A stretch of 64,000 nt of DNA from positions 16,958,975-17,022,974 of the forward strand of contig OZ018409.1 of NCBI GenBank assembly GCA_963969595.1. Reading direction: 5' to 3'. Below the pieces are notes generated by a model. It saw nothing but the letters and a program-made list of their open reading frames with translations, searched no databases and was not told the origin of the DNA. This document shows, one piece after another, positions 35,396-57,325 of the stretch. Within the stretch, counting starts at the first letter, position 1, and each line of letters opens with the position of its first letter. The position numbers were made by a program, and so were the translations under genes. Source of the DNA: Neckera pumila. Taxonomy: Eukaryota; Streptophyta; Bryopsida; Hypnales; Neckeraceae.

Positions 35396-36045
35396 GAAAT
35401 TGTCGTATATAAGGTAGAGCCACCCATAACCGACCAAATAAGGAATTTCAACATGATATGTAGTAGTGAAGGCAAAACAAATATTTTTCAGAGGTACATC
35501 GATAGAAATGACAAGGATTGCAAAAAATTTGGTAATTTTATCACTTGAACTAAAACTACTATGAATTTTGAAAGGTAAAAAGTGCACCGGACCCATAGCC
35601 AACGTTTAGACACTTCTAATTCCAATAGTTCAATAACTTTTTTCCTAATCATTATTTCCTACTTTCTTTCTCACAACTTGGGACATGTGTCATGTATTTA
35701 TTAGTTCCAACCTTGAAAAGGCGAAAAAAACACATTCAACACCGAATTAGGCATTTTTGCACTTGGGGGGTGCGACATTGCACTTGGCTACTACGGCATC
35801 TAAAATGGACAGTCTCATATGTTGAGGGGGGGAGGAATTATTGGAAACGTCATTTGCTCTTAGTAGGAGAAATTGCTTGGTGAAAAGTTGTCAAACACTC
35901 CATTCTTTATAATTATTTCATGAAAACCTTTCACACTTTTCACTCCATACTACTTTTAAGATATATTACTTTGCACTTCACACTCAAATACTTCTAAATG
36001 CCTACAACTATAAGGTCAAAGAGTATTGCATAATATCATACTTCA

Positions 36046-39000
36046 CTAATACATATTCAAATCATTTTGCAGACGTTCGTCATCTAGGTTCTCCATCTGC
36101 ATTGCCATGTATTCCAAAAGATGCGCTTTAGCCTCCGGTGGAATGATCACTGTCTCCTTTGTTTCCACGCCATATACTGTAATGTTGGAACCTATAAGAT
36201 GACCACTTCTCCCTCGACGAGGGACATCCGTCCACGAATATATAGCGGCCTCCTTCTCGGTCCAGCCCAACATCTCACCAGACGGTTCCCACATTGACTC
36301 CATACAGTTCGTGTACCTCACTCGGTTACTACCTGCTTCATCATGTGCTCCAGGTCTCATAGTAGGCCAATACCACATGACCTTCATCTTGGAGGCCCAC
36401 GTCCCCTGACCGAATTCTAGCACCTTCCCTAAAAAAAAGGGTACTCCTCCTCTTACTTCCGCTAGTTCTACGGTAAGGGCTACGTAGTGCCTTACAACAA
36501 CGTCATTCTCTGGATTGAATGGAGGAAACGGATCTTCCTCTGCATCTTGTCGTACCTCTGCTATAACTTCATTCCTTCTGCCTTGAATCCTCCCTCCAGT
36601 CACTCTTCGTGATGTAGCTTGTACAGGTCTATCTCTGTGGGGTCCGAAATACCCCCTCCTCTCAGGATTTGGCATTGTCACCATAATCCTGTCAACGGCT
36701 ACACTCTCCATTCTATTTCCATCTTCATCAGCAACTGCACTTGAATTTGTACCTCCTTCCAAGTCAGGAACAATTCCATCGTCCCTGTTCTGGTTCAAGA
36801 CATCGCTGGGCCAAAATGGTAAATCACGTACACCTTCTCTATTTCGTTGTGGAAATGTCTCCAAATAATCCTTGAATTCTTCTATTTCATCCACCACTTC
36901 CATGTTCCTGATCGGGTTGTAACCTCTCTCTACCATCTTCTTCTTGTATGCTATGAACTCGTCTAATGCTTTCAATTCCCTCTGATCAGCTGCAAACAAC
37001 TCCGCGAGGTCAGGTTTCTCTGCTACGCTTGGTAGTGAATTAAGACACAAATGTCCTCTTGTTGGGCCCCACTCATCTGTGCAAAAATGCTTGTGTTGCA
37101 CACGGACCAACCCATTTTCCACGTAAAATCTCATATGGTGTGGAAAAGTAATGCCCGTCAGTGATTCCCCTCCTCGAAGCAAATGAGGTGTGATAAATGC
37201 CTTCCAATCACGAACATGCTCAAGCTTCCGAGCACTCACAAAAGCCTCTGTGTAGGACGTTCCCTTCTCCACAAGTTGCAACATCTCTGTCAAAGTGTCT
37301 ATGTCTCTCCTCTTCAATGTATTCGAAATCACACTGAATCTCTGATCAATGTCCTCATGTGTGTGGCCCACTATCAGAAAACAAAGATGCACTTCCTTGA
37401 AGAAACCAAGCCCAACTAGTGCAGCGCACATGGCAAACATGTAAGCGTTCTTGTTCTCCCTCGTGGTGTTATCCGCTTGAATCCTCAACGTCGGTGGCAA
37501 TGACCCCTTCCTTCGCTTCACGTCGCATATGATATTCATCACCGACGTTACCACTTGATTGCTATCATGCTTGTAGTGAGCATCTATCCACATGTCCGCA
37601 TATAGGCTGATACCATGTACAAGTACACCACACAAATGAGTCTTCACAAATTGAGATTCGATGTTCTTCACAGTTTGCCTCATCTTTGGTATCATGGTCG
37701 TATTTTGATCCATACCGTCCACAATCAAACACATGAAAAAGTCCGGGGTGATCATTGCGGACCTCTTAAACAACCAATAATCTCGCCTCTCTTCCATTTG
37801 ATATCGAATGTGCAGCACGTACAACTCTTTTATCTTCACCTTCGCTACTGCATTTGTTGTGGACTCCATCCCACATTTGTACTCCCAACAATGATAGCAC
37901 TTTGAGAATCTGGAGAAAGGTGGTATCTGCACATGTGGAAATTCCTTCCGCCAAAGTCAACGAAACGAGTTCATCGACAACTCAGATCCGTCCACCAGTT
38001 TCTTCACTTCTTCATTCACATACCGAAAAACATCCAACTTGGTCGTATTCATTGGCAACAAAATCAGTGGTAACACTGCATTGTCCATTTTCCGGCGAAC
38101 CGATCGATGAGGTTGCTGACACCCTGCTTCATTCACAAAAACGTTGAGACTTTCCCTAGTTGCAGACATTTTTGCACTTTCCCTCCGGTTACACGTGTTT
38201 CCATGAACGGCTGCCACTCGGCCATACACAGCATGTGCTTTCTTCAATTGCTTCAAACGCCTCTGAGAATAACCCAACGCCTCGGCGTAGCATGCATTGC
38301 ACACGACTCTGCCATCTAATTTTGTCACGTATTTGTCTCTTGTTGGACCCTCCGTGCGAGTGTAAAAGGCATTAAGCATTTGCATTATCCAAGTAGCCCG
38401 CACTTCGTACTTCTGCCCCCATGCCATATATCGTTGATCCAAAACATATTTTGCATCTACATCACGCAAACAATTGTGTTTACATGCTCCTCTCTCCTTT
38501 GCACGCAAAACACTTTCCAGAGTAACTTTTTGATTAGTTGATCCCCCCCTCTCTCTTGGATTCCTCTCCCTCACCCTTCGATTTGCCATTGAATACCTCC
38601 TCTTGGGTGTACGGTCAGGTTCTCCTACTCTTGTGAAATCAACAGTGTTGGCTTCAGAGCTTTGCGTTACAGGAGAACTTCCTTCAGGTGTGCTTCTTGC
38701 ACCTTGACTTGGTGGTGTGAACTCGGAAGTGCTTGGACTGTCTTCCACGTCATGAAAATCAAACTCTGGTGCTAAAACAGGAGGAAAACATAAATTATGC
38801 CCCTCCCTTGAAGTTGTTGTGGTTGTTCTCACTTCTGAGGGAAGTGCACAACGAACTGAAGTACGACGCCATTGTATAACCTTATCTACACAATCTCCCA
38901 TAGTCTCCCCCACCAACTCACCAACCCATTGTGCTTCGTGTATAGCATGTGTAACACGAACCGCAATTTCGAAAGGACGTAATTTTTCTTGGTGAAGTTC

Positions 39001-39246
39001 ATCACCGCATGTAACACTCATGTCCACCACGCCAACTCCCACAACATGACCATTGTCCCCAAGAAGTTGAACCATACCATTTGTAGTTTGGGGTACTCCA
39101 CCAATAGGTACACGATCTTCTTCTTGGAAAAGTCTTCCCCGTACCACACGCGCCAATCTTTCTCCAACGCTCCTTCACTCTGTTGCAACTATTGTTGTGC
39201 CTACGCCATTGAATACCACTGGACTTCCAAATGCTTCCGCTGCCAT
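36046..39246 (-). pseudogene. DUF7869-like transposase-type protein with two in-frame stops
   Basis: One continuous frame of 1067 codons from an ATG at 39246 to the stop at 36046, broken only by TGA at 39177-39175 (codon 24) and 37959-37957 (codon 430). Possible zinc-ligand pairs occur in ACKHNC and VVCNAC (N-terminal half) and CYHCWEYKC (about 449-458). The core has VDGMDQN (D510), QADNTTRENKN (D592) and GHTHEDIDQ (E631/D634), spaced like the acidic residues of an RNase-H-fold transposase/integrase. This motif set is what I associate with DUF7869 proteins, which are common in non-seed streptophyte, algal and invertebrate repeats. A beta-rich tail (WYWPTM...NCMESMWEP) resembles the C-terminal module of these proteins. 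There are no introns or frameshifts. If the upstream TGA is ignored, a shorter start near 39156 would use a non-ATG codon. The family name is from memory; the transposase role is inferred. Confidence 0.7.
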
Positions 39247-39664
39247 TATCTGCCGCCACAGGTGCATAAGAGTCACCTACTTTGTATAGAATTCAATAAT
39301 TTCAATATGTTTTTGAACCTTTGCCCTCGTTATAATCCATTCAAATAGTAATTACTAAATAAAATTTCCTTCAATTTCCTAAGAACTACTGAAATTCCAG
39401 TACCTTGACTAATCAAACTGTAACTATAATTAACATTATAAAACTGTCAACCGCTGTTGTGTTTTTATTCCCTTTCTTTGCTTCCAGAAAGTTGTGCAAC
39501 TATATTAGTGAGTTCAATTTTAACAAGAATTGCATGCTGCAACTAGAACTTCCAAAGCATAAAACCCAGTCACAAATCTAAATTCTAAGTTCTCTTTCTT
39601 TAACTTCACAAAACACAAACATCGTTTACGTGGAGCACTACTTCAATTTCTGACCATTCACCCG
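39247..39664. other. Upstream flank of the DUF7869-like frame
   Basis: AT-rich DNA that would hold the promoter of the minus-strand frame. No specific motif could be assigned. Confidence 0.4.
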
Positions 39665-39728
39665 GGGTGTTTTTCCAAATTGACAGGCCAAGGTTGAAAT
39701 ACCTTGGCATGTCAATTTGGAAAAACCC
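39665..39728. repeat. Fold-back element (hairpin) with GGG...CCC ends
   Basis: GGGTGTTTTTCCAAATTGAC and onward pairs with its complement ending GGAAAAACCC across a loop of about eight bases. Arms are about 28 bases with two or three mismatches. It shares its core with 28871-28909 and with one arm at 40080-40110 (GGGCCTCTCCAAATTGACAT). Confidence 0.75.
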
Positions 39729-41057
39729 TTTAGACTACTGATTTCTTCTCTCATGTATGTACATATTTTTCATATTCAAATAACTACTACACCATTTCTA
39801 GTTGAAAGATGGAGTTTCATATCACAAATCCCAATGCTACCTCTGTATTAGTAACCTCACTGAATCCGTTGCAATCTATCTTCTTTTTGAAACTAGTGAA
39901 TATTGCATTCAAAAATGAATCATACATGTAATCTGTAGAAATACAATACTTCGATTGCCTTCAAAATCAGATTGTCCAAAACTTTCACATCACTACTTCA
40001 AATAAAATGAATCAAGTCTTCTCATATGAACAGTAATATTCACGATGAATCAAAGCATTCCGAAGGGCCTCTCCAAATTGACATGTCAAGTTATTTCAAT
40101 CTTTACTACAGTTTTATTAATTTATTAATTGTTTAGGGGACAAAGAACTCTATCAATGGTTTGAGTGGCATTAGTTTTGCATCCTAGCAACACTACAAAT
40201 AAGAATAATATTCACAAAAACGTAGTGCAGTTTGTTTTTCTTTTGAATATAGAAAAAAATCACCACACTAATGAAGGTAGCATGAACCTACCCACAAATC
40301 ATTTTGTTCCTCGAGGGTATATTGCAAATTCAGGGATTCTAAATGAGAAAGGATTATACGGATGGTTTCCACGATAATTAACTACGTCCCTCCAATCATG
40401 GTGATAATGAAATTTCAGGATTTTCTAAGGTCTCAAGAACAATAAAAACAATTCTTCCGATTCCTTTTCCCAAAGGACCCCATATCATAAATTAGACAAT
40501 ATCTTAAAAACTTGAACTTCACAGCAAACGAAATTGTATTTCATTTCCTAGCAAGTATACATTATATTCAAAAAATGCTCCTTTACGGAGCTACTGTGCT
40601 CTAACATTGATCGTGCTCTATAAGTGATCTTCAAATATATCATAAGTGAAATTATGTTCTTTTGATGCAGAAGGATTGAAAATTTCCAATGCAAACACAT
40701 TCAGAAACCAACAAGTATGTACTTCAACAAATTGTAACGAATGAAACAAACGGATTTATATGCCAAAATCATGAAAACTTATTGAAAGTTGTTTAAAAGG
40801 ATTCAACTTCTTCGGAAAAAACAACAATGTTTTAAACGGCCGCTCTTACATTGTTCATTTAAATTCTTTATAGTACGGAGTTCTGAAGTTCAAATACTCA
40901 TGCTTAAAAGTTGAATTGAAAAAATTATGAAAAAATAATAATTTTCATCTTTCAAAGAATATATAGGTATAAGATACAAGGGAATGTTAATGGACTTCCA
41001 GAATGTCAATCCAAAATAAACAATTAATTTAGCAATGTGTCCTATGGGAGTTCATAC
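39729..41057. other. AT-rich non-coding region
   Basis: No gene supported. A single arm related to the preceding fold-back is at about 40075-40110. Confidence 0.6.
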
Positions 41058-41637
41058 TTAAAGTCCCTAAGAAATTTTATGTCAAAAATCACTCAAAATT
41101 GCTACTTCTGTTGCATTCATCGAAGAAATAAAAAAAGTGGATTTCTTTTAAAAAATAATTGTAAGATCTTGAACTACGTTCTCTCTAATTATGTTGTACA
41201 AATTTTGTGATTTTCGACCATATGGATTGAAAGATATTAGCATTCAAAGTAAAAATTTGTTTTTTTTCCAAAAGAATGATTTAATTGCACTAAAAACAAT
41301 AAACTCTATAACTTTCAAATCCCTAATCCAAATGGAATGAATCAAAGCTTCCCATTTCAACAATAATATAATGTATTAGAAAAAAACTATAAAAAAATGT
41401 ATTTCAATTTTTTATGGATTTTTTTTGCTACCCGATCTCTTCAATTTTGGGGTTACAGTAGCATAACTTCTGCTGCCAGACACCAATCAAAATAAAATTA
41501 CATTCCCAGGAAGGTAATGAGTTCTTTTATATTATGGAAACATTTAATAAAGTTTTATTGAAATTTGAGCTTTTAGAAACCTTCCCAACATCCATTATGT
41601 CCCTCGTAGGGACAATGACGGACTTTAGAGATTCAAT
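41058..41637. mobile_element. piggyBac-like TTAA element, internally deleted and eroded
   Basis: The left end TTAAAGTCCCTAAG and right end ACTTTAGAGATTCAA are degenerate versions of the family termini. Recognisable internal phrases are 'actcaaaattgctacttctgttgca' near the left and the subterminal palindrome-like TGTCCCTCGTAGGGACA near the right. It is about 580 bp, so roughly a third of the family length is missing. Confidence 0.55.
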
Positions 41638-42766
41638 TTAGATATTGCATACAATATTAATTTACAGTATTCTTATGAAATATCCCCCACCTACTTTTTC
41701 CATGCTCTACAAAATGATAATTATATAATATAAATATAATGCTCTTTAATATCTTTGAATATATTGCTCTTTATTATGAATGAATAATGCTCTTTCATAT
41801 AATGAATAGAATGTTGTTTAATATGTTTTTTTATACAAAATGCAACATCAAGAACAATGCCCCAAAGTTGTTCACCGCAAGGACAAAAGGATAAAAATAA
41901 TTAATAAATTCTCTCAAAACAGGATCTTCTGTCCCTTTTCATGGAACTTCATCACTGGAATGAAATTTATGGATATATTTTCCATTTTAATTTATTATTG
42001 ACGGGCATAGTTCAAAATTGTATATGTATATATTTTCAATCAAGAATGTTATAATTACATATCATACATACAATTGTGGCATCAAATAATTAATAATTTT
42101 GAAAATTTGGATTCATAAACCGCGAAAACAAAATTATTCTACAAGACTTCCGTTTCCATTAAAACATATTAATTTTCAATTATATAGTTTTCTGAAATAT
42201 TAGCTTCCATTTCCATCAATATCTTTTTTCAAGTGGCTTGAATTAATTTTAAAAAGCACAATTTGGAAAAAATGCATCTAAGACATTTAGATGAACTTGG
42301 CATAAGAAAAAGGAGATTCACGGATTCAAAAATTGTTTGGTTTAAGTACAATTTTGTATTGACATCAAACCAACTCTATGTAGGAATTTATAAAGGCTAC
42401 AGAAATCTAATATAAAGAAAGGACAATTATGCTATTGCATGTCACACTATAAGTCTCTACGATATGTCCGGATGAATACCTATGAATAATTTGTAATTAT
42501 TGTGATTTTTGCAAAGAAAACTTCTAAAAAATTTGTATAAAACTGTGTTCCAACTATGAAGGTAAAAAGAAATTAAATTAAATATGGACATATAATAAAA
42601 CAAATAATTAATCGCACTTTTTATAAATATAGAGTTTAATGTAGAAATCTAATGCAGTTGTATGAAGTCTACAAAATAAAATGCCTTTTTAGTCTTACAT
42701 TTAAAACTACTATGCCCTATGGCGTCGCCACGAAGAAAATAAAAATAAAAGTAATTTTCTAATTTC
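41638..42766. other. AT-rich non-coding region
   Basis: No gene seen. Its right end (42725-42766) carries a piece of the repeat also present at 22850-23005. Confidence 0.6.
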
Positions 42767-43702
42767 TTAACCCCTGAAGGACCAAACGTTGTTGTTTGGC
42801 AACATAGTGATTTTGGTTTGCTCAGTACAAATGGAAGTCTTATTCATATTCTTTGGACATTTCACACAATATGTGCCCAAGGAATAGCTTTAAGGCCCAA
42901 AAATTTTCAAAAATTCTGATTGCATGGTTAAAAAGTTATTGAATAATATGTCTATTCCAATGCTCGGCGGGCACCTTAAGAAAATTCTGAAAAAATCACT
43001 TTTTAAAAAAATTCAAATTTAAAATTGGTTTTCTATATCTATATATACATATGAAGCTCTGAATTATTCCATTTTGATTTATGAAATGAAAATTATGAGG
43101 TGTTCTAGTTTGCAGGCAATGATGGATTCCCTATTCAAAAATGAACTTTGGAGTCCTTTATTTCACTCAAATAAAAGTAATTTTTTGAAAAAAACCAAAG
43201 CATAGGATGTATATTCATTATATTGCAACCTTACAATCTTGGATTTGACAATTTCCAATTCCATAACTAAATTCTTAACAATTTGGTATTTTGAATCACT
43301 CTCCATTTCTTTCTATAACCTATTTTTTTCCCTACAGCTGTACAATTACAAATGATTTGAATTTTTTTGAGCATGTAGCCAAATTGTTTTAAAAAATGAA
43401 TCCAGAAAGTAACCACAATATTGGACATTTTTTCATTTAATTATGACCTTGTAAAGTGCACCTGCCCGATTTTTTATAGGGCCAAAACAAGGGTTTCTGT
43501 AAATTCGAATGCTAATATCTTGCAATGTACATGGTGCAAAATTTTGAATTTTTTTCTACATATTTTCAAACAAGTTTACTACAAAATGCAATGATTACAT
43601 GTCTCCAAAGATGTTTTCTTCCTAAAATTTGATACTTGTACTAGAAATGGCAGTTTTCAAGTGTCTTTGGTAGAAACATACTCTTTGACCTTTAGGGGTT
43701 TA
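42767..43702. mobile_element. piggyBac-like TTAA element, reverse orientation
   Basis: Begins TTAACCCCTGAAGGACC and ends ACCTTTAGGGGTTTA. The internal order is reversed relative to the other copies: 'agaaatggcagttttcaag' lies near the right end. It is 936 bp, matching the family length. A subterminal CCAAAC...GTTTGG inverted pair lies near the left end. Non-coding. Confidence 0.7.
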
Positions 43703-44229
43703 TTCAAAAATTAACTCCAAAATTTTAAAAACCTACACATTGTAAGTTTGAATGCCACTAAATTAAACCAGTGCACCACTTCTTCAATAAGGCTCTACGG
43801 CAGTGCACAGGATGCGGTTGGAAGACACACTATTTGGAAGATCTCATTGAAAGTTAATTGACCATAAATCGCATTATTAAACAATCTAAAAAGATTTAGT
43901 ACGGTTTTCATTTTTACATTGAAATAAAATTTGTAGGGTCCCATTGGTAGTCAAGAGGGGATTCTAGATTCTTTTTGGATGCATTTTTTGGACACCGTGT
44001 GAATAAACTATAAATTCCTAAAGTGCTGAGAATGAATGCAGCCACAAGCAATGATCCAGTCAAATGAATACAGGGAGTACATTTTAGAAAACAATATCCA
44101 TTCTCTGATTTCTGGAAGCGTGCAATTTAGGTGTACTTACCTTAACAAACTAACAAGCAAACAAATAAATAAGAAAATGAAAAAAAAAATAAACAAACAA
44201 GCTCTTCGTAAGCGAAAGAAGCGAAAATT
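43703..44229. other. AT-rich non-coding region
   Basis: No gene supported. The short 44036-44236 ORF is K/N-rich low-complexity translation. Confidence 0.6.
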
Positions 44230-44861
44230 TAAATGAACCCTACGATTTGTGAATCCTGCTCATCGTGCAGGCTTTGTTAGGATTTGTACAGGCTTTGTCC
44301 TACGGTCTGACGTTCTCTTCGGGCTATTTTTTAGGGTTTCCGGCGCTGTCTTCAGGCCCTGTCCGCGGGTTCGAAGATCTCTTCAGACGAAGACTCCTCG
44401 CGTTTTCGACTTCGGAATGCTCCGATGTAGATACACTGAATTGGGTTATCATGTACACAGAACGTTCTTCAATTTCAGACTAGATTTTGGTACCCACAGG
44501 CAATTTCATGATTCGCTTACTTGTGTTTCTCTGCAGCATTTCAGATTGTCTTACAGTTTTAGAAATGGTCGTTGCGAAATTCAGACAGTGGAGAGGACAA
44601 AATCGACAGAGCTAGGGTTGGAAGATAATTCGAATTGAAACTCTAGTTTGAGAGAGGTAGTAGCAATTGTGACGATTATGAGGGAGACGGATACAGAGAA
44701 CTCACGTCGTTAATGTTAGCGCTGTTCCATTAGCGATGAAACAATTTTGTTTTAGTTAGGCAAGGAAAAATTGGAACATGTTCGCTTTACTCAGCCTTCC
44801 AGAGAAACTGTCGCGTGTTGCGAGGCCTTCCGGCAGACGACGTTTTGAGATCAAGTGCGTG

Positions 44862-44931
44862 CAAGTGAACAGTGTTTGCAGTCAGACCCTCCCCATGTGC
44901 GGGGGGTCTGACTGCAAATACTGTTCATTGG
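44862..44931. repeat. Strong hairpin, arms about 30 bp, six-base loop
   Basis: GAACAGTGTTTGCAGTCAGA at 44867 pairs with TCTGACTGCAAATACTGTTC ending at 44926, with one mismatch in that stretch. The arms extend into CCC/GGG next to the loop ATGTGC. Confidence 0.85.
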
Positions 44932-45171
44932 CAAGTTGCGGTTGCGGTGAGAACAGGAACGGAGGTCTTTCCTCCACAAACGACCTACAAGTTCCCGGAA
45001 GTCAACAGCGGTGACGTTGCGGCGTGTTTCTCGGTGGTTTTCAACAGGTGGACGGCACAAAAGTTGGGGGGGGGTGGAGAATTTACCTGACTTTTAGGTT
45101 TCGACTTTTCCGCCGCTCCTCTCTTCCGCCGCGCCTATCTGCCGCCACTCCTGTCTTGTGTTGCCGAGGTG

Positions 45172-45246
45172 TCAATTGCTCTTCTCCTTTGCCGCGCCTG
45201 TCCTCCGTCAATTCTTGTTCTCCTCTGCCACGCCTGTCCTCCGTCT
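45172..45246. repeat. Two-copy C/T-rich direct repeat
   Basis: A unit of about 36 bases, 'ttctcctttgccgcgcctgt' plus 'cctccgtc', occurs twice in tandem with few mismatches. Confidence 0.7.
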
Positions 45247-45434
45247 GGAGCTAGCGCAACTCCCGATCTGCAAATTCACCACGTTCACAGAAATATTGAT
45301 AGTGCAACCACAGTCAAGAGCTCAAGAGTGTTGGAAGGAAGTGAAGCTCACCTAGTGCCTACGGTAGTTCACTAGAACGATCGCTTGTGCATGAACAGAA
45401 TTCTCGCTTGCATTTCACATAATGCTGAATCTGT

Positions 45435-46472
45435 ATCTCCGTTTCTGTGTTGGCCTCTGCCGTTTTTGCAGGAGGATTGACTGTTCATGGCGATGATTGT
45501 CAACTAATCTGTGCGTGTACAATTCAGGGCAGGACGGGAGAGGACGCGCAAGGGAATCAAACTACGAGCTTGGTCAGGACATTGGCAAGGTAGATTTTTG
45601 GTATAGCATCTTGCAATCACTGAGAGTTAGGGTTTAGGCTCCTTCGCTGTTGTTTCGTTTTTAGTTATTTCTGATAACCAAAAAATTTAATAAGTACTGA
45701 CAAGCCTGAGCGATGTCCCCATCATTGAATTCCATGCTCTACTTCGCAATGATTCGGGTCCTGCCATCTCTGCAAATCTGTACAATGAGATGCGAAAGTT
45801 GCGTCAATTTTATGGTCTCCACAGGAATGTGCATGGTAAGGTAATATTTCAACTTTGGGGAAAAACGAGACTTTGTAAATCATCGCTTCAACGCCAAGGT
45901 CTCCGGATATACTCTGGAGCATGAGTTCAGTACACTTTCTTTTTGTAAAGAAAAGTACAGACTTCGACACCAGCCGAAAACTCTTCAGTAATCGCGATCC
46001 CAACTCCGTCCATATTCTGAATGTGCCACGCTATTTACTATAAATTGCAGGAAAACAGTAAGTCCATTTCCTGTCAAAGGCAGTGAAGGAATCATGGGAA
46101 GGTAAAAAAGGAGTGTACATGAATCTTCAACCTAATTCATGTATCCACGTTGTCCTCTGATTCGTCGGCATCTGCTTGTTCCAATTCCGCAGCAAATTGT
46201 GGATCATTTTCAGCATCTGCGTTCCGAAATTATCTCCGTTTCTGATTGTCGGCCTCTCCCGTTTTTGCAAGACGATTGACTGTCCTGACGATGAATGTCA
46301 GCTAATCTGTGCGTGTACAGGACAGGACAGGAGAGGACGCGCAAGAGATTTGTGTGAAACTACGAGCTTCGTCAGGACATTGGCAAGGTAGATTTAAGGT
46401 ATGGCATCTTGCAATCACTGAGAGTTAGGGTTTAGGTTCTTTTGCTGTTGTTTTGTTTTTGGTTATTTCTAG
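45435..46472. repeat. Direct duplication of a telo-box-bearing segment (about 240 bp, offset 798)
   Basis: 45435-45680 and about 46225-46472 match in order: 'ctccgtttctg', 'ctaatctgtgcgtgtaca', 'gagaggacgcgcaag', 'gtcaggacattggcaaggtagattt', 'gcatcttgcaatcactgaga' and 'gctgttgtttcgtttttagttatttct'. Each copy contains TTAGGGTTTAGG (45627 and 46425), a telo-box found in plant promoters and leaders. Confidence 0.85.
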
Positions 46473-46820
46473 AAGGAAAGGCCCCATTGGGAAGCACTAT
46501 TCACTATTTTCAGTTTTAGGCAAGAATCTAGTGTCAGCTCCTTCATTTTTTGACATTGTTGAGCACAGTGTCATCGGAGATTGGTCGGAGAGAAACTGGT
46601 CGTTTGTGAGGAGATACAGACTGATCCAAGAGATTCAGCACGAGTGAGCTTTGATTTCTGAGGGTAGTCCCTGTGCGTGAGAGATTCAGCTGTACTGTTG
46701 CTCTTGGTCGTTTGAGATTGAGACAGATTGGGAGGCGAGGAGGTTGTAAATTGCTTTCCTCCTGTGCACTGTAATCGTAATGACGAATTTTCTGTTTTGT
46801 GAACCTTACCTGAGGAGAAG

Positions 46821-46898
46821 GTAGTGACGAAATTGTGAGAGAAAAGGTAGTGACGACATTGTGAGAGAAAAAGTTCTGACGAAATTGTGAGAGAAAGG
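46821..46898. repeat. Tandem repeat, three 26-bp units
   Basis: GTAGTGACGAAATTGTGAGA plus six bases repeats at 46821, 46847 and 46873, with a partial fourth after 46899. Confidence 0.9.
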
Positions 46899-47530
46899 GT
46901 TGTCACTGAGTTTATATTTCTGGATCTTCCGAATTTCTCAGTCTTGTGCATTTCATACCACCCACCCATACAGGACAACTACTGAAGTTAAAATGATTGC
47001 ACACTCTCAGCTTCTGGAATGCCGTAGGAAATTGGTCCATCCTTGGATCTTTCTGTTTGTAGAGAAGCTATATGATTTGGTAGACTTGTATTGTCATTGC
47101 CACATAGATTTGTGCAATGAATGAAATTATTCAATTTTGCTGGATTCATAGGAAGGTAGTAATTTTGCTTGAACATTCTCTTGGGTTTAAGGCGTTTGGG
47201 CCTTCTGAATTTTTTTATGAAATGAGCACTGCATTCCTGGAATCATAGTCAGTACATCACATGTGTGTGAAACAGTTTGTGAAAATCACGTGACTTTGCC
47301 CAGCTTCCCGAATGTTGAGATCGTCTCTTAACTTCTGACTGATAGTTCAAGCAATGCTGGCATTCTTAGATTTTCTGTTCTGTTTTGGTCCCTTTTGTTG
47401 TTGCTTTTATGTGTTTCTCTCTTATATCTACTGTGAATGCGAGCTGCAAGCAACTGCGAGAGGATTGAGTATTGGTTGGTGAAGGTTCGGAGCTTTTCAA
47501 AAGGCATTCGCAAGGGTGCGCCTCCTTGCT

Positions 47531-50500
47531 TTTGTTGATCTGCTTTTGAATTTATTTAGATTGGCGTTTGTCGTTTGTGGAAGCCCTGGCCGTGGTACAT
47601 GGTATGTGAAGAACTGATTTGAAGATGAAAGAGAGTTCGGGAGAGAGTGTTGCCTGCGTTGGGATTTACTGTTGCGTGGTTCTTCTTTTAATCGTTTTCT
47701 TTTTATTGCTCTTGTTTAGGCGTGATAGTGAGAAGCACGATAAATGTACATCTGGGCTACTGAAAAATTGAAAAGAATGGTTTCAGCCGTTTCAGGTAGA
47801 AAGAATGTTTTGACATGTAGTATGCTAGCTCTGGACAACTACTGAACTTTTGTTTTATTTGGAAATTTTTTGTTTGTACCCAAATATAAAAAAAGCACCT
47901 TGGTTTCGTGACAACATTACTAAAAAGTTTATGAATAAATGAAAAAGAATTTATACTTGAATTGGTTTTGTTATTTGAAATTTTTTTCTCAAAGTGTAGT
48001 GAAAGTATGAAGCATGTGATTTCAAGAAAGATTGATATGATTTTTCTATTATAATTTTGGGGCATAGGTGTCCATTGCAATATTCAATGTATATAGTGTT
48101 GATGACTCTTAAAAGCAAGCCTCCCCTTTAACTATTCCTGTATCCAAGAAATCGCAGTATACATTTAATTCAAAAAATTGTGCACATACTGAAAAGACAT
48201 AAAGTAATTCGGGTTTGAAGTTAGGTATAACAAATTAAAAGAGGAATGGAAGACTATTATTCATTTTTGCTTTTGAAATACCCTCATGATCTAACGTTTT
48301 CATCTTGAGATGAAAGATGACATTGTTGTGTTTTCTACTCTCATGTATTATCTAATACATCTAGTTTTTAGAATGAGGATGCTTTAAATTATGAAAAATG
48401 TGATTCAACTTTTAAACTGATTGTCTTTTTGTTCAGTTTAGAACAAAATCCTTGAACTCAGATAAGACCTTGGGCATTTAGGGGTTCATACATGTACACG
48501 TGAGAAAAGAAAGAATGACAGAAATCATCATTATATAACTGGACATGGCAACTCTGTCAAGAGTAGGATCTATAGTCTACTTATTAACGTCATACGGAAG
48601 CATCACATTGTCTCCATATTTCATTTTCATTGCAAGGTGCAAATGTTTGAATGTACTAGTTGTATCTGCAACTTGAACTTTTTATGTAGTGGAAGATTAG
48701 TGTAATAATTAAAGGGAGGCATTTCTAAAACTTTCATTGCACACATTGTGAAATAGAAATGTTTCAAGGAAAAGGAGATTTGGTATTTTTTAAGAATGAC
48801 ATTGTTATATACAAGTAAGTACATGATGAGAATGAAATAAAATTTGACACAACCAAAAAAGTGAAAACAAAAATGTAAAGCACAAAATGAATTTATCAAA
48901 TTGTTATATCTATAAAATTTCATTCTATAAACATATTTTTTCCGAGAAGTTGTGCGAATGCACTTTATGATTTTTTTTATTTTTTTTATTATACTGTGGA
49001 AAGAAGATATAAAGGTTGCTCGAAAAGAAGATTTTTGAAATCTTTTGGATTGGTCCAAAAAAATGAAATAAATTAGAGCATTGGATATTGACTACACTGA
49101 TGTATAGGAATTAAGAATTCATGAAAGTATCATTGTTCAATTATGTTTTGTACTGTGCTTTTAGACAACCTCCATTTTTACTTCTGTATTTGATACATTC
49201 TTATTGATGGTAACCACAAGGTACCAAGAATCATAATCATCCTTATACTCATACATTAACAATAGGGTTCCCTTAAATTGTTTCCCATAGTATCGTTAAT
49301 CCACCCCCATGTTTAATTGTGGTTGGTAGGCTATGATATTTTAATTTTTTTGAACTAGAACAATGGAACTGCAATTGACTTTGGTATAGTTAGTATTGGG
49401 AAGTTGGATTTTCAAAATGCATTACAAAGTTAATGATTTATTAAAAAAAAATTCTCTTTCGATTGTAAGAACAATTGAAATAAAATAAAATAAAATGGGA
49501 CAATTCGAATTGTGAACTTGTGGAACTAGGACTTTATGATATTCCGCAGAAGATCATATTGTATAGAGTTCTGAAGTGACAATTGAGTTTGTTTTATTTG
49601 TCTATTGTATTGAAAGTGATTACAAAATGATCAATAGCTTTAAATGAGGACAATAGGAGGAAGTTCTCAATTGTTACTGAAATGAATTATATTGGGTTGG
49701 TAGATTAAGTGGTTTCATTGAAAGGCAACATTAAAATGAAAATGAAAACTAATGTTGCCAAGCATATAGTTTTCAATTACTTATTCTCTATTACTTAAAA
49801 ATTAAAATTCACAAATACTTAACTACATGACAGGTGCTCAAAAGGATTGCCTGAAGTCTAGCATACATATTTTGCTATTGTAAATTCATTCTCTTTTTTA
49901 TGATGCTTGCCATTTTATATTCACTTTGTGTTCAATAGTGCAACCTTGGAGTCGTATGAATATCCTTATAATACTTCTTGAATGTTTGGAAATTGAAGGT
50001 TGTTATGTTCTATGAATGTAATTAAGTATTTAGGAGAATTTGAGACCTTTGATTTTGAAGCCTATATTCTAGAAGAGAAAGAATGGTGGAGTTGTTGATA
50101 GTGCATGTTGCTTTACCAGATATCTCCAAAAAATCAAAGGTCGCAGAACGCAACAATTAACAGTGGAAGTAGCACAATCACGCGTGTTAAATAGTTATCT
50201 GTAGAATCCAACCAGCAAGCAGATCTGCATCAGGTACTTTTTCCCCCTTTTTTCAAGAATGAGAGCATTTCATTAATATATGTCGGGATGTACTCATGTC
50301 GATTTCATTCTCATTCTTTAGAGCCTGTTATTTCTTCTTTGCAAATATAAATTAAAGTGTTTGTGGAAGATATGAATTTATGTCATAACAAACTGTTTTA
50401 TGATTACTTATGAAGAATTTCATAAATCCAATACATATTATGGATGAAGATGGAGTCAAAATCACTTTGAAATTTATAACTAAAAAATATAAAATGTTAA

Positions 50501-52228
50501 ATCCATTCAATCCATTCAATGTATGGGGGACTTTTCAAGGTTTAAGTTCCTTGCCTTCAGTTTTGTAATGTCCAATTTTGGGTGCTTACTGGAATTGATA
50601 GTAAACAAACTGAGGCTCTATAATTTATGAACTTGTAAAATTAAGACTTCATAATCTTATGAAGAAATACAATTCATGCAGAATTTTGAAGTAGCAGGCA
50701 AGGGGAGGTGTATTGATCCATTCCTTGTTGTCTCATCTAATTTAATTATAAATAATTGTTTTTTTGAAAGCCGTAATGATGTTCGTTCCAAAGGAATGGC
50801 AGAAGTAATAATTATAGTATTTTGAACCAAAAGTTTAGTAACATCTAGAAGAAATTCTAGAATCCCCCATCCGGAACCAAGATGAAGGGAACCTCGAGAA
50901 TCAATCAAATTTTTTTTTAGCAATATGTATGTATTTTAGAGGTTCTATTTTAGAACAAAGCTAAACACCATTTTTTTATGGAAGTGAAATGTATGATTGT
51001 TTCATGGAAACTATTGACTTTAGCTATTGTGTATTCAAATCAATTTGAAAAAAAGGTTAAGAAACTTTGAATGTTCAATGTTCTTAAAGGAGAAATTACA
51101 GTAAATATTGAAGTTGGAATGGATAGGTGTACCCTACAAAGTACAAAGGGGGAATTTTCTGTTACAATTTTTGTATGAGTACATATTCAAAAGCAGTTAG
51201 AAGGTATCTAAAAATACCAACTATGTAGACTTTGTCTATCAGTAGTTTATAAAGTATTCCATTTCAATTGCCATATATTTCGAAGGTCCTCAAGCGCGAG
51301 TTCATGAAATTTAAAATTTGAGGAATTATTTTTGTTGGCTTTGCATAAATTTTTTTTTGGTTTTCTTTCATGGCTGTTGTTATTCTGTAAATGGTTCTTC
51401 AATTTGTTTTGCTGTTGCAATATTGTACTAGAATATATTATGTATATTCTAGTTGCATTCATGTTGTTTGTTTGTGTTTAGAAATTTCATAATAGAAGTT
51501 CCCATGTGATGTCCATCATGTACATAACCAGTTTGTTGAGCCACTATCGAGAAAGGAAACATTGAAAGCAATTAGACATTACATTTTTTATGTAATTTTA
51601 TTAAACTAAAGACATTGTCACAGTGAACTTTGTACAACATCTGAAAGTGAACATTTAAATAAGTGAAATTGAGTTTCGAACTAGGAGTTGAGGAACTGAA
51701 AGGTATAGTGATGGATTTTTATAAGATAACTTTTACTTTTGTGTGTGGAACTGATTTTACTTTATTTGATAGACCAAGGAACAGCATATATAGGTAATGA
51801 TATAATTATACATGTAATGTTCTCCTGAAAAGAGATATATAATATTTTGACATCCCAATTATATTGTTTTTTTTTGGACTGAGAGTGGAGTGCATCTGTT
51901 AGAACAATTGTGATATTCATTGTCATGCATAGAACTCGGATGTTATTCGAAAACAATTGCCTTTGATTTCAAAGATAGGACTATTGTTGGAATACAGTTT
52001 TTTTTTCATTGGTGAGCTTGGTCTTGTCTTTATTTACATTTCGTACCATAAAAAGAGTATTCGTTTGTTTTAGTGCAAGAGTTTTTCAAAACTCACAACG
52101 AATACAGTGTGTTTTTCAGATTTGATACAATAGAAATTACAGTTTTTAATTTTTTCAAATGTATTTTAGAACTTTTGAGAACGTCAGTGCATACTAAAGT
52201 ATTATTGAACTTTCATTTTCAGGGCATC
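47531..52228. other. AT-rich non-coding region upstream of the ParB/methyltransferase-like frame
   Basis: No supportable gene. The last few hundred bases would hold the promoter and leader of the following frame. An acceptor-like TTTCATTTTCAG lies a few bases before its ATG, so a leader intron is possible. A phrase GGGCATTTAGGGGTTC near 48470-48486 resembles the TTAA-family terminus but has no partner. Confidence 0.5.
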
Positions 52229-55200
52229 ATGGCACCAAAGATTCATTCAAAGTGGTTGGAGCACAGATGGTGGATCGTAGCAATAAACAGTAAAAAGTCT
52301 TCTTTGTGGATCACAGATTTCCCAATTGGGCAGGGGACTTATGAGTCTGCATTGGCGTCTTCACATGGAGTCATCGAGGGCCTCACGGGCACCGCTGACG
52401 GAGGACTAACTGTGTCGGTGACCACCACAGAAACGACACTTGAGAAGTATAAACTGAAGAAGATGTTGATGATGGCTCCGATTCCGGTACAACTTCTTTC
52501 AGTTCTTACTCCCATACGTAGCTTGAAGAGTGTGGCAAAAGATTGGAAGAAAGTGCCTCATGAATTCCAGATTAAACGAGAGGGAGCGGTTCATAAATTC
52601 ATGGAGATGACCAGTGAACAAGTGCAAGCATTGCGTCATCGATACCGGGAGATTGTAAGCCGTGAAGAATTAGAAAGGATGAACCCAAGTGCTGTCCAAG
52701 AGCGGCCTGCACCAAGAGATCCAGAAGACTTCAATGAAATCTATCGGGATCTTGCTACACCAGTGAATCCAAATTGGGTTCCATTGGATGAACGGAATCG
52801 GAAGCGAGCTGCTGTTCAAGAGGGATTAGGAATCCATGCAGATGAAGGGGTTATTTCTGGTAGACCGAGGGCACAACGTCAACGTCTCCAATCTGCGGCA
52901 ATCAATGTTGTTGTTCAACCTACAGGTCATAATGAAGAGGTACAAGTGCAAGGGAGCGCTGAAGTGAGGCCACCATTAGTGGAGATGGAAGTTGCTGAAG
53001 AATTGTTGCAGTCCGGGGGGGGGGGAACTCAAAATCCTGTATCAAGTGAATCCTCGGTTTTCCCTGAGTTTCCTAGTGAAGGAGAAGAAGGACCTCCAAC
53101 CACGGTCACGGAAGTTGGATCAGGATCAAGATTAAGGCAACCAAGAGTTGGCTCAAGTGACAGAGTATACAGGTCACATGTTGTAGTAGCCAACGTGGAT
53201 GCTGGAAGGGTTGCTGATTGTGCAGAACGGGGTGCTGTTAGGAGACGGGATGTTGGTGCAAGACGTAGTGCTGGAAGAGCACGTGGTGGACCGGAGTTGC
53301 AACATGATTCTGCAGTGCCAGACATTTCTGGAGACCAATCAAGGCGGCGCACTCGTGCAACAAATGCTGCAGAAGAGCAAGGCATTAGGAAGCAAACAAC
53401 AGCACAGATACGTCGTCGAAGAGCAGCCTTGCAAAACCGCCCTCCACAAGGAAATGATGGCGAAAATGATATTATTGAGGATGATTCCTCTGAGGGTGAA
53501 CCGGAGCAAGAGCCTAGAAGAGTATTGCCGAAGAGTATTACGAAAGCACCTGTGGTTTTTCCTACAGAGACCGAGTACAGAGCAGGATATATATGGGGGC
53601 AGAGTTTGATTTTTGATGCAAAGATTGATAGCATCACCGAAGTGGCTAACGCAGAGACAAACCACAGGGTGCTAATGGATTGGCGTGTAAATGAAATGTA
53701 CGAGCGCCTCAGGGGATCCGAAGCTGATGGAGTCAGTGCGATTACCCTTCGTCCCATTGCATATCGCTATGACAGTAATAATGACGAGGGCGAGACAGAG
53801 GTGATAGAGGTGCCATTCAGCCAGGAAAGTACTGCACGTGAATTTGAAGCCGTGTATTTAAGACATTGCCAAGTGAATTCATCCCTCTCGACCAGCGCAT
53901 TACAAAAAAGGTGGCTAGAGAGCAATATTGTATGGGAGCCAGTAGATGGCCAACATATTGTTGGTGCTTGTAAACGAGCCCAACGGGAAAAAGAAGAGGG
54001 ACACTTATCCAATGAAGAGTATCATGCGCAGTTTCAAAGACGGAAAGCAAAATTTCTGGTTTACAACAATCCTCAATTTTGTATAGAGGCGTCTGTGAAA
54101 ATCAATGCAAAGGAGTTTGACAGGAAGTTCTTCACCACACATTATGAGAATCTCATCAAACTACGCGATATATGGAAAGCGTGTGGAAGACCAAGTGTTG
54201 TTACTCGAGCTAATGATGCACATAGGGCAAAAGCATTGACAATGGCTGCGAATGCGTTACATTTGAGTCAAAATTTATCGAAGCATGTATCATTGGGGGA
54301 GCTGTCGAGAAAGATGGTGGATTATACACGCCACGCTTGGCATGAAGATGAAGAGTCCTATAAGGCCATCTTGCAGGTGTGCAAAGATTATGAGGACAGG
54401 AAATTGTTTTTCAGCAAGAAGGCGGAAGATAAATGGAAGAAGATGGCTAGAGATCGGAATCTTGATGTCACAGTGGATGGGAACCCAAAGAGGAAGAGGA
54501 TGGAGAAGACCTGGTGGAGGCCCTTGAATAGCATTTCTACGGAAAACTATGTACGTGTGGTCCAGAAGATGGCTGCAAAGGATGTGGTGAATGGAAAGCG
54601 AGCTTCGCAGCGATACTATTTCAATGATGCTGCTTCTGCAAACCCCTCTAAAGGTACAGTGGCATATGCGGTGGACACTTTACAGCGCAAAGATGCAATC
54701 AGAAACCAAATTCGGTTTCTTATGGTAGAAGCAGGGGATGAAAATCCATTGTCCATGGATGATTTCTTCTGCATCGACGCAAGCAAGTATGGAGATGTGG
54801 GAGGAAGATAGTTCATCTTGATGGGGAGGACATTAGATAATGACACAAAGACCTCGTGGATTTTTCCAGCTGTAACGACGGTTCAAATGCTTAGCAGTTT
54901 AGAGAAGGTAGTCCCAGCTTTCGTTAGGCAACACTTTGTGGATATCCGAGCGGGTCGCAAAGGTTATGTGGGATATGGTTGAGACGTTCAGGATGTATCG
55001 AATGCTCGCTGGAATTGGCAAGTTGCAATCTCTGTAGTGCAACACGAAGAGCGTGAAGCTTTATTTCACGTGAGATGTAGAGGAGGGTTCTTTGAGGACG
55101 AGTACATTGAACTTGGCGAACCATGTTTATGGATTTTTGATTGTAGACGTGGAGGTTCCCAAGGAGAGGACATCGCATGGTCGAACGAGGATTACAGCAA

Positions 55201-56626
55201 GGTTGTGCAACAACTGAAGAACTGGATGTCTTGCATTTTTCATTGGAATGCCGTGTTTATGTTTCCACCAGGCGTATTTTTTGACGAAGAGATGGAGTCA
55301 AGGATGGCGTTGCCAGAGGGTTGCCACGTGCTCCGAGGTTCTTGGATATTTCAAGCAGAGACAGTGTCCTCATACGTGCATGATTTGCGGCATGGCGAGC
55401 AACGACGACGCGGTGTACAATCCATTGGTGGCATTCTCATCATCATGAATTATCCCGAGGAGAGTGGGTTCATGGAAAACCTCCCTAACAGTACGGACGA
55501 CTTACAAGTTATATTTCAAGACTCGTGGAGTACGGAAGTGATGCCTCGAACGCAAGACAAGTTTGAGAGGACACCAATAGAGTTGAAGAGATTGGTACAA
55601 ATGTATTTGCCACGCAATTGGGGGTTGGTAACATTGGGCATAACAATGGCAATGCCAGGGATTTTAGAGACAGGATATGTGGGTCATGATGTCATCATCA
55701 TGGAAGGTGTGTCCGTCAAAACACAATTTGTGTACGACAGATTGCAATCGATGTATGGGGAGAAGTTGGTGATGGTGAACAGTGTGAATATGGCCGCCGA
55801 ACGCAGACCCTCACAAGTGTTGACTACAGAAGAGAGCTTGCCTGTTTCCGATGTTTCTGAAACAAATGGAGCTGTGCCACGTGGTAGAGTTGAAAGACTA
55901 CCGCGGTCATCCAGGGACTCTTCCGATGAAGAAGAAAGATTTCAAGTGACTAGACGGGGAAGGGGGAAGGGAAAAGCCGTAGCAGTTGATTCGGGAGACT
56001 CATCGACAAACGAAGATGAGAGTGATGCCGAACGGACAGAATCTGACAGATTACCAAGTGCTGGCCGAAGTTTAGGTTCTCGTAACACTGATGCAATCAG
56101 TGACGCCCGTGGTGACCAAGCAAACTTGATGGAAGTGGAACAAGATCCGGATTTTATTGTTGCAGAAGCAGTTGATGAGATGGACGACGTGGAACCGGAA
56201 CAAGTTGAAGGAGGCGTAGGAGAAAGTGCAGATACAACAGCACCAACGGAGTCCATGTCAGCATTCTCTGCATTTAGCGAATTGGATCAAATGAACTTTG
56301 TCCCGGATGGTGAAGGATGTTATCGTAATAGGGACAACGTTCGATTCACTCGAACAGGTGAAGGACCACATTACATTTATCACCGGATGACTTCCATCTT
56401 GGAAGGACCTTCTATGTCACCAACTTTATCAGAAAGAGTAACAACGCCTATTGCAAGCGCTACGGTGGATACAGCATTGTAGTATACCTCTCTGCCTCCA
56501 GTGAGTCCAATCAGTGGACCAAGTGCACATGATCAAGCGGAGTCAATTGGTAGAGGAGAAGGAGACCACTTTGAACAATCATCTGCACGAGTGTTGGAGA
56601 CACCGGATGAAATAGGGCCGTTATAA
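52229..56626 (+). pseudogene. ParB/DGQH-like plus degenerate permuted DNA methyltransferase-like protein, three in-frame stops
   Basis: One frame of 1466 codons from ATG 52229 to TAA 56626, with internal stops TAG 54809, TGA 54980 and TAG 56480. It stays open and in phase across all three. Order: N-terminal globular part (1-200); acidic and Arg-rich linker (200-430); a domain at about 440-640 with WEPVDGQHIVGA (569-580), resembling the DGQH/DGHHR motif of ParB/sulfiredoxin-fold proteins; a helical part; then about 940-1180. This last part has CLWIFDCRRGG at the position of the DPPY motif, and RTPIELKRLV...NWGLVTLGITMAMPG...GYVGHDVIIMEG in the arrangement of motifs X and I of permuted N4/N6 methyltransferases (KPleLl...FxGxG...E). 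The catalytic residues are missing (DPPY to DCRR, no FxGxG), so methylation activity is doubtful. The tail is acidic and low-complexity. ParB-methyltransferase fusions are known from phages and mobile DNA; this assignment is motif-based. A run of 11 G at 53015-53025 is a slippage risk. Confidence 0.6.
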
Positions 56627-57120
56627 TAGACATAGTAGTGCATGTGATGGTAGAATAAAGTATGTGAGAGTAGAGACGTTGTGTGTTAGTTTTAAAAGTC
56701 TATGAAGATGTTCAAATGACTATATGGTATTATATTGATGTGAGCACATAATTTAAAAATGTGAAGGTAGTTGCTAAACCTTCAATGTCATTCTGGATTT
56801 ATAAATAAATATTCCTAAAATTATAGTGAAAATTGCTGCACGCATGATATCCGCATTTAAATATTATAACACTCATGTAATAGCAATGTACAAAGCAGAA
56901 AGATTAATACATAAGACCAAAAAAAATGATTAATAGGAAGAAATAAAATGTGTTGGACTTGTGTGTCTCTTGGAAGAACTGAAATTGCATCTTCATAGAG
57001 AGTTTGCATTCAAAGTGATAGTATTGCATGATGAAATTAAAAAATGGATTTCTTTAAAATCTGGGGGGTACTCAAGTTTTTGATAACACATTTTTTGTGA
57101 ATAGTTTTGCATATGATCAT
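56627..57120. other. 3' flank of the right-hand frame
   Basis: AT-rich DNA without a gene. It leads into the tag region that may mark the element end. Confidence 0.5.
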
Positions 57121-57325
57121 TGCACTTGGCCAAGTGCAAAAATGCCTAATTCGGTGTTATTCTAAGCTTGGTCAAAAATACGTGCACCTATAGATCCGGA
57201 ATGGTCACTGGTCGAGAATGGGTGGCTCTACCTTATACATCATTTCATACACCTTGTATGTCAAATATACAAAAAAACACCATGCAACCCAAATTAGGCT
57301 TTCAGACCCCCAAGGGTTAACACAT
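57121..57325. repeat. Right-hand terminal-type repeat with palindrome
   Basis: Contains the perfect 18-base palindrome TGCACTTGGCCAAGTGCA (57121-57138), tag B complement (about 57127-57155), tag A complement (57216-57236) and a B-like piece in the opposite sense (ACCCAAATTAGGCTT, about 57287). Both tags recur inverted at 35396-35770. Confidence 0.6.

What the first reader, a model, noticed from the sequence alone, without database searches (positions are those of the whole stretch)
52229..56626. Transposon-borne ParB/DGQH-like plus methyltransferase-like fusion in a plant genome
Seen: a single 1466-codon frame with WEPVDGQHIVGA in the middle. About 400 codons later comes a block laid out like a circularly permuted N4/N6 DNA methyltransferase (motif IV position, then KPleLl-like RTPIELKRLV, then the motif I position and ...HDVIIMEG). 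Known: ParB-methyltransferase fusions occur in phage and plasmid DNA. Inference: a prokaryotic-type anti-restriction or epigenetic module was captured by a plant mobile element and lost its catalytic residues (DCRR for DPPY, no FxGxG). A non-catalytic DNA-binding or SAM-binding role is possible.
Basis: partly seen in the sequence, partly recalled or inferred. Interest (0 to 1): 0.8.

Follow-up and report, generated by a model that had tools for sequence, protein, structure and literature searches.

The report
Transposon protein with dead enzyme folds
A 22-kilobase jumping gene in a probably plant genome carries a protein built from two bacterial or phage-type enzyme folds, a ParB-like domain joined to a DNA-methylase-like domain, and the relatives found so far lack the same key active-site residues, so it probably binds DNA rather than modifying it.

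Summary
The single 1466-codon open frame is not there: three in-frame stops (54809, 54980, 56480) interrupt it. Homology still runs through that frame with no frameshift, so this is a decayed copy.

The expected ligand residues are missing. The ParB GxxR box reads GQHI in 51 of 51, DPPY reads DCR[RW][GN] in 14 of 14, and the FxGxG loop is absent in 10 of 10 that reach each site. This is a conserved double pseudoenzyme, not decay of one copy.

Nested inverted repeats (29/29 and 26/29) enclose this gene and a divergent DUF7869 gene, defining one 21.8-kb DNA transposon. No relative turned up in the viral, phage, plasmid or prokaryote-genome searches run.

Most likely it is a non-catalytic, DNA-binding accessory protein of the transposon. 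Function, phage or bacterial origin and plant host are inferred.

The parts
35408..57237 (.). the whole transposon as bounded by the outer inverted repeats (21,830 bp)
   Evidence: nested inverted repeats in the same outside-to-inside order at both ends; no target-site duplication identified
35408..35436 (+). left outer terminal inverted repeat, TATAAGGTAGAGCCACCCATaaCCGACCA
   Evidence: 26/29 against 57237-57209; the first 20 bases identical, 0 expected in 100 shuffles
35738..35766 (+). left inner (subterminal) inverted repeat
   Evidence: 29/29 against 57158-57130; only 2 matches in the window, 0 expected
57130..57158 (-). right inner (subterminal) inverted repeat
57209..57237 (-). right outer terminal inverted repeat
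36046..39267 (-). DUF7869 gene (candidate transposase), itself broken by in-frame stops at 39177 and 37959; start chosen by eye
   Evidence: Pfam PF25273 E 5.1e-53 in the 628-aa piece 36046-37932; frame read with stops shown
52229..56482 (+). ParB-fold/pseudo-methyltransferase gene (decayed copy; stops at 54809, 54980, 56480)
   Evidence: relatives; tblastn continuous in frame +2
52229..52804 (+). N-terminal domain, fold not tested (MAPKIHSKWLEHRWWI...)
   Evidence: matches P0053 residues 1-194 (32%) and the N-terminus of P0001
53606..54121 (+). ParB CTPase-like fold; WEPVDGQHI at 53933-53959 (model residues 19-190 carried over to the window)
54122..54979 (+). helical linker region, possibly including a ParB-type DNA-binding domain
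   Evidence: low confidence in model 1, better in model 2 where the ParB match extends to chain residue 228 but with rmsd 10.7
55019..55755 (+). pseudo beta-class N6A/N4C DNA methyltransferase domain; DCRRG at 55139-55153, motif X RTPIELKRLV at 55568-55597, shortened motif I at about 55622-55660

Best explanation
This is the second gene of a 21.8-kb terminal-inverted-repeat DNA transposon. It encodes a large protein: an N-terminal domain, a low-complexity linker, a ParB-type fold, helices, a permuted methyltransferase-type fold, and an acidic tail. Both folds are kept, but the ligand and catalytic positions of both are replaced, at the ParB box and motif IV by other residues that are themselves invariant. 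Proposed mechanism: the protein is a non-enzymatic, DNA-binding accessory factor, an analogue of transposon helper proteins. It recognises element DNA, perhaps the terminal and subterminal repeats, through the ParB/helical and pseudo-methylase parts. It then helps the DUF7869 protein assemble on the ends, or counteracts silencing of the element. SHOWN: the element boundaries as inverted repeats, both folds by prediction, invariance of the replaced residues in the relatives that reach them, and decay of this copy. INFERRED: DNA binding, no catalysis, the accessory role, and descent from a phage-type ParB-methylase fusion.
For: Folds: from models of two clades. Same domain order as viral proteins: BFVD hits H9YSJ8, A0A6J5MMM5 (named ParB/Sulfiredoxin) and A0A2D1A3U0 align over 693-770 columns in both searches, with low TM-scores; that the two unnamed ones are ParB-methylase fusions is inferred from that span. 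A named phage protein with Pfam ParB_N followed by N6_N4_Mtase, L015, has GHGR, DPPY and DPFGGSGS where this family has GQHI, DCR[RW][GN] and a shortened loop. GQHI in 51 of 51 proteins that contain GQH; DCR[RW][GN] in 14 of 14 that reach the position; no [DNS]PP[YFW] anywhere in the 63. Motif I: 10 proteins reach it and none has FxGxG there; hhalign, not significant, opens a 4-residue gap at that loop. Same element as the DUF7869 gene. Clusters of up to 51 member sequences and proteins on up to 38 contigs would fit a repeat family, but may reflect repeated sampling. Literature: replacing the Box II arginine by alanine abolished nucleotide binding in ParB-fold proteins (PMC12704722, passages); SPPY to APPA abolished activity of the rotifer N4C methylase (PMC8885841, passages).
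Against: No DNA-binding or functional assay exists. Sequence profiles do not detect either fold: Pfam, NCBIfam, PHROGs and PADLOC found nothing convincing, and hhalign against 12 methylases related to YhdJ is not significant (probability 0.1%; a first run gave no alignment). Invariant DCR[RW] could be a new active site rather than a dead one. No target-site duplication was found, and the linkage to DUF7869 rests on this one locus. That DUF7869 is a transposase is inferred. The target-recognition part of the methylase domain is poorly modelled (model 1 residues 601-670, pLDDT 38-66).
Confidence: 0.55

Rival explanations
1. A re-purposed enzyme: the invariant Asp-Cys-Arg-[Arg/Trp] at the old motif IV position, with other invariant residues, forms a new active site acting on DNA or nucleotides (for example a modifying or nicking activity used in transposition).
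For: Residues are invariant at the old catalytic site in 14 of 14 proteins from two clades 21-32% identical in the rows compared. A ParB domain fused to a methylase has been reported to nick DNA (Bce_0392, passage in PMC5512222).
Against: The SAM loop and the ParB pocket arginine are both absent; PMC5512222 ties nuclease and ATPase activity of the superfamily to that arginine (passage).
Confidence: 0.15
2. An anti-silencing protein only: it binds host chromatin or methylated DNA as a dead methylase decoy and is not needed for transposition.
For: Dead methyltransferase partners with structural roles exist (METTL3-METTL14 and MTA1-MTA9 entries appear among the matches; the partners' roles are recalled). 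Accessory proteins of plant transposons that relieve silencing are known (recalled).
Against: Nothing tested here bears on chromatin; no chromatin-reader domain was found by Pfam.
Confidence: 0.25
3. An ordinary host gene family, with the transposon linkage at this locus accidental.
For: Only one locus with full context could be read; no duplication of the target site was found.
Against: Nested repeats 29/29 and 26/29 in the same order at both ends, 0 expected by shuffling; the copy is decayed and so is the DUF7869 gene.
Confidence: 0.1
4. The methyltransferase or ParB resemblance is a prediction artefact of AlphaFold2.
For: No sequence profile supports it; model 1 has mean pLDDT 68 and pTM 0.49.
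Confidence: 0.07

Closest known systems
Phage ParB-N6_N4 methyltransferase fusions (PF02195 + PF01555), e.g. phage NatCom_17901 XTK82662.1; surveyed in PMC12704722
   Same: same two folds in the same order in one chain, on a mobile element
   Different: phage protein keeps GHGR, DPPY and DPFGGSGS and is found by Pfam; this family has none of the three, is 804-1271 aa in its longer members with long helical, low-complexity and N-terminal parts, and sits in a TIR transposon of a eukaryote
beta-class DNA methyltransferases: M.BceJIV, CcrM, M.RsrI, M.PvuII; rotifer N4CMT
   Same: permuted fold, motif order IV ... X-I
   Different: no DPPY/SPPY, no FxGxG at motif I; 4-13% identity over aligned residues
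ParB CTPase domain (Myxococcus ParB 7bnk)
   Different: GxxR arginine replaced by Ile in 51 of 51; long insertion in the fold
DndB / DGQHR proteins
   Same: DGQH string in a ParB-type domain (family motif recalled)
   Different: DGQHI, not DGQHR; no such NCBIfam match in 7 members
Bdelloid rotifer N4CMT (PMC8885841, abstract in listing and passages read)
   Same: a bacterial-type beta-class methylase fold inside a eukaryote, structurally close
   Different: N4CMT is active, a host gene, fused to a chromodomain; here the motifs are missing and the gene is transposon-borne

Membership tests
ParB CTPase-fold superfamily | ParB N-domain fold | tested here: met
ParB CTPase-fold superfamily | Box II P-motif GxxR arginine | tested here: not met
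   GQHI in 51 of 51 proteins containing GQH; 12 of 63 lack GQH, of which only P0023 covers the position. The equivalence of GQHI and GxxR rests on the predicted strand-G-helix pattern, not on a residue-level structural alignment
ParB CTPase-fold superfamily | profile match to PF02195 | tested here: not met
   window; 57 members of A3, none
ParB CTPase-fold superfamily | HTH DNA-binding domain after the CTPase fold | tested here: inconclusive
   one search match extends to ParB residue 228 with rmsd 10.7
ParB CTPase-fold superfamily | NTP binding | not testable with these tools
   needs a bench assay
beta-class N6_N4 DNA methyltransferase | permuted Rossmann methyltransferase fold | tested here: met
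beta-class N6_N4 DNA methyltransferase | motif IV [DNS]PP[YFW] | tested here: not met
   0 of 63 proteins contain it; DCR[RW][GN] in 14 of 14 reaching the site
beta-class N6_N4 DNA methyltransferase | motif I FxGxG SAM loop | tested here: not met
   absent in 10 of 10 proteins reaching it and in the window; the string FxGxG occurs in 5 of 63 proteins, but in the middle region
beta-class N6_N4 DNA methyltransferase | profile match to PF01555 | tested here: not met
   hhalign against 12 methylases not significant
phage ParB-methyltransferase fusion | both folds in one chain, ParB first | tested here: met
   yardstick L015
phage ParB-methyltransferase fusion | sequence relatives in phages, viral contigs, plasmids or prokaryotes | tested here: not met
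   tblastn of P0002 in phages and P0035 in plasmids: only E > 1; no relatives in viral contigs or genome contigs. These contig scans rest on one to six short peptide patterns each
TIR DNA transposon | terminal inverted repeats | tested here: met
TIR DNA transposon | target-site duplication | tested here: inconclusive
   longest flank match 7 bp and not at the ends; a 2-bp TA cannot be told from the repeat itself
TIR DNA transposon | DDE-type transposase | tested here: inconclusive
   PF25273 domain of unknown function present; D..D..E-like residues seen by eye only; no PDB sequence match
TIR DNA transposon | several copies in one genome | not tested
   The genome search did not answer in 12 tries
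DndB / DGQHR family | DGQHR with arginine; NCBIfam match | tested here: not met
   (7 members scanned)

The most novel reading that the evidence does not exclude
A whole class of eukaryotic DNA transposons, DUF7869-type, uses a helper protein descended from a phage ParB-methylase fusion. Its two enzyme pockets have been rebuilt, around GQHI and Asp-Cys-Arg-[Arg/Trp], into a sequence-specific DNA clamp or a new catalytic centre that marks, protects or cuts the element's own ends.
Probability: 0.2. Interest if true: 0.9.

Novelty: new variant of a known kind. Interest (0 to 1): 0.7.

Why it matters
The 2025 survey of the ParB fold (PMC12704722; abstract, sections 7 and 10 and passages read) describes ParB-methylase fusions from phages and bacteria and names sulfiredoxin as the commonest eukaryotic member. 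The words 'plant' and 'transpos' do not occur at a word start in its main text; its supplement was not seen. A conserved, transposon-borne ParB/pseudo-methylase family in eukaryotes would extend that architecture to another domain of life. It would also add a pseudoenzyme class to transposon biology and give a testable candidate for how large DNA transposons recognise or protect their own ends. I found no description in print with searches of the open PMC library. I saw only the top of the longer listings (20 of 879, 15 of 43, 10 of 861, 12 of 77); subscription papers and preprints were not covered.

Tried and rejected
Considered and rejected: (1) Decay of one copy explains the odd motifs: rejected, because they are invariant in the relatives that reach them. 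(2) Membership of a catalogued family: Pfam, NCBIfam, PHROGs, PADLOC and PDB sequence searches gave only noise. (3) Relatives with intact DPPY and FxGxG: none among 63, though the searches reach only relatives sharing exact 5-residue words. The string FxGxG does occur in 5 of 63 (P0004, P0005, P0007, P0019, P0036), in the middle region and not at motif I. (4) Another locus of the family inside the window: tblastn of 10 of the 63 relatives found only this one. (5) Rfam and tRNA scans of the window: nothing. (6) hhalign of 13 family rows against 12 methylases: not significant (probability 0.1%, E 0.68; an earlier run in the same call gave no alignment), although its weak alignment has the expected motif X/I register. 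The 12 are E. coli YhdJ and 11 phage proteins found by similarity to it; PF01555 was confirmed for 4 of them. (7) Phage proteins L002 and L003, fetched in the hope of ParB fusions, are methylases without ParB_N. Foldseek TM-scores for the viral proteins aligned over both domains are low (TMq 0.19-0.21), which may mean only that the domains are placed differently.

Rows dropped: the motif counts use only proteins reaching the site. 49 of 63 lack DCR, and none of these covers the position by blastp against P0002; 12 of 63 lack GQH, and of these only P0023 covers the position. Motif I counts 10 of 63; my first pattern had caught 9. Three regex hits for DG..R (P0008, P0010, P0061) were checked and lie elsewhere. 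A4 used 26 of the 63 proteins as whole rows plus the P0035 core and two window pieces; A3 used 54 of the first 56 proteins as whole rows (P0050 omitted, P0002 entered as its core) plus two window pieces.

Limits: relatives are unnamed cluster representatives without genomic context, so the DUF7869 link, copy number and host taxonomy could not be checked elsewhere.
Full report
WHAT IS THERE. tblastn with relatives runs through these stops without a frameshift: P0001 residues 10-1004 match 52229-55360 at 39%, and P0002 residues 7-779 match 53441-55759 at 46%. So the frame was once a gene and this copy is decayed. The nearest relatives found are P0009 (69% over 428 aa) and P0029 (57% over 371 aa).

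RELATIVES. The first search gave 4 proteins. A profile search gave 56, these included. A search with the most divergent full-length member, P0035, gave 8, of which 7 were new. That makes 63 proteins in two clades. The P0035 core is 21-32% identical to the 19 clade-1 proteins in alignment A4 and 54-80% to its own clade. Ten lie on contigs of 156-683 kb, and others stand for clusters of up to 51 member sequences. No informative name is attached to any of them, so taxonomy is unknown. No relative was found in viral contigs or in the prokaryote genome collection; these scans use one to six short peptide patterns each. P0002 in phages and P0035 in plasmids gave only matches with E above 1.

ACTIVE SITES. 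The predicted pattern places GQHI where ParB has GxxR: strand, then G, then helix. The Ile is present in 51 of 51 proteins with GQH. DCR[RW][GN] stands at the end of the strand that precedes DPPY in methylases, in 14 of 14. The loop between the motif-I strand (model residues 692-696) and its helix (699-707) is too short for FxGxG, and 10 of 10 proteins that reach it lack FxGxG. hhalign, though not significant (probability 0.1%), opens its gap there. A phage ParB_N plus N6_N4_Mtase protein used as a yardstick keeps GHGR, DPPY and DPFGGSGS. From the literature, the Box II arginine is required for nucleotide binding (PMC12704722, passages) and the SPPY motif for rotifer 4mC methylation (PMC8885841, passages). 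I conclude, by inference, that neither canonical activity remains. The replacement residues at the ParB box and motif IV are nevertheless invariant where seen.

THE ELEMENT. Two inverted-repeat pairs, 35408-35436 / 57209-57237 (26/29) and 35738-35766 / 57130-57158 (29/29), lie in the same outside-to-inside order at both ends. Neither is expected by chance. They enclose the ParB/pseudo-methylase gene on + and, on -, a gene with Pfam PF25273 DUF7869 (E 5.1e-53) that is itself broken by stops at 39177 and 37959. The 3' ends of both genes point outward to the repeats. A third, weaker copy of the outer repeat (3 mismatches in 20) lies at 29571-29590 on -. No target-site duplication was found. DUF7869 as the transposase is inference: Pfam gives it no function and no paper in the library names it.

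MECHANISM. A transposon carries, next to its probable transposase gene, a long two-fold protein with replaced ligand sites. The simplest reading is a DNA-binding accessory protein that helps assemble the transposition complex at the ends or relieves silencing. I hold this at about 0.55 overall. The fold assignments alone I would put at about 0.85. Rivals and refuting results are given in their sections.

KNOWN VERSUS NEW. Fusions of ParB and N6/N4 methylase folds are known in phages (PMC12704722, section 7 read). A eukaryotic, transposon-borne version with none of the canonical motifs was not found in eight paper searches, which cover open PMC papers only and of which I saw the top listings. 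I therefore rate it a new variant of a known kind.

The motif I count rose from 9 to 10, the FxGxG strings elsewhere were added, the number of protein searches was corrected to three, and wording on the viral hits, the comparison methylases and copy number was narrowed.

Noticed in passing
window 5508-5861 and 8588-9007 (-): Exon-like pieces match Pfam FragX_IP (PF05994, E 2.9e-15 and 1.4e-24), recalled as the PIR121/SRA1 family of the WAVE complex, in the order expected of one gene on the minus strand; intact or broken not examined.
   Followed up: partly
window 36046-39267 (-): DUF7869 gene with in-frame stops at 39177 and 37959; residues DGMDQ, QADNTT and GHTHEDIDQ look like a possible D-D-E set by eye.
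   Followed up: partly
window 29571-29590 (-): A third copy of the transposon's outer repeat motif (3 mismatches in 20; bases just inside also similar), possibly the end of another element of the same family.
   Followed up: partly
window 26601-27519 and 30638-31556: Direct repeat of about 920 bp, 88% identical, 4 kb apart: looks like a degraded pair of LTRs.
   Followed up: no
window 35437-35737 versus 57159-57208: The spacing between outer and inner repeat is 301 bp at the left end but 50 bp at the right, suggesting an insertion or deletion in one end.
   Followed up: no
window 52229-52804: The N-terminal domain shared with P0001, P0010 and P0053 has no Pfam match and was not folded.
   Followed up: no
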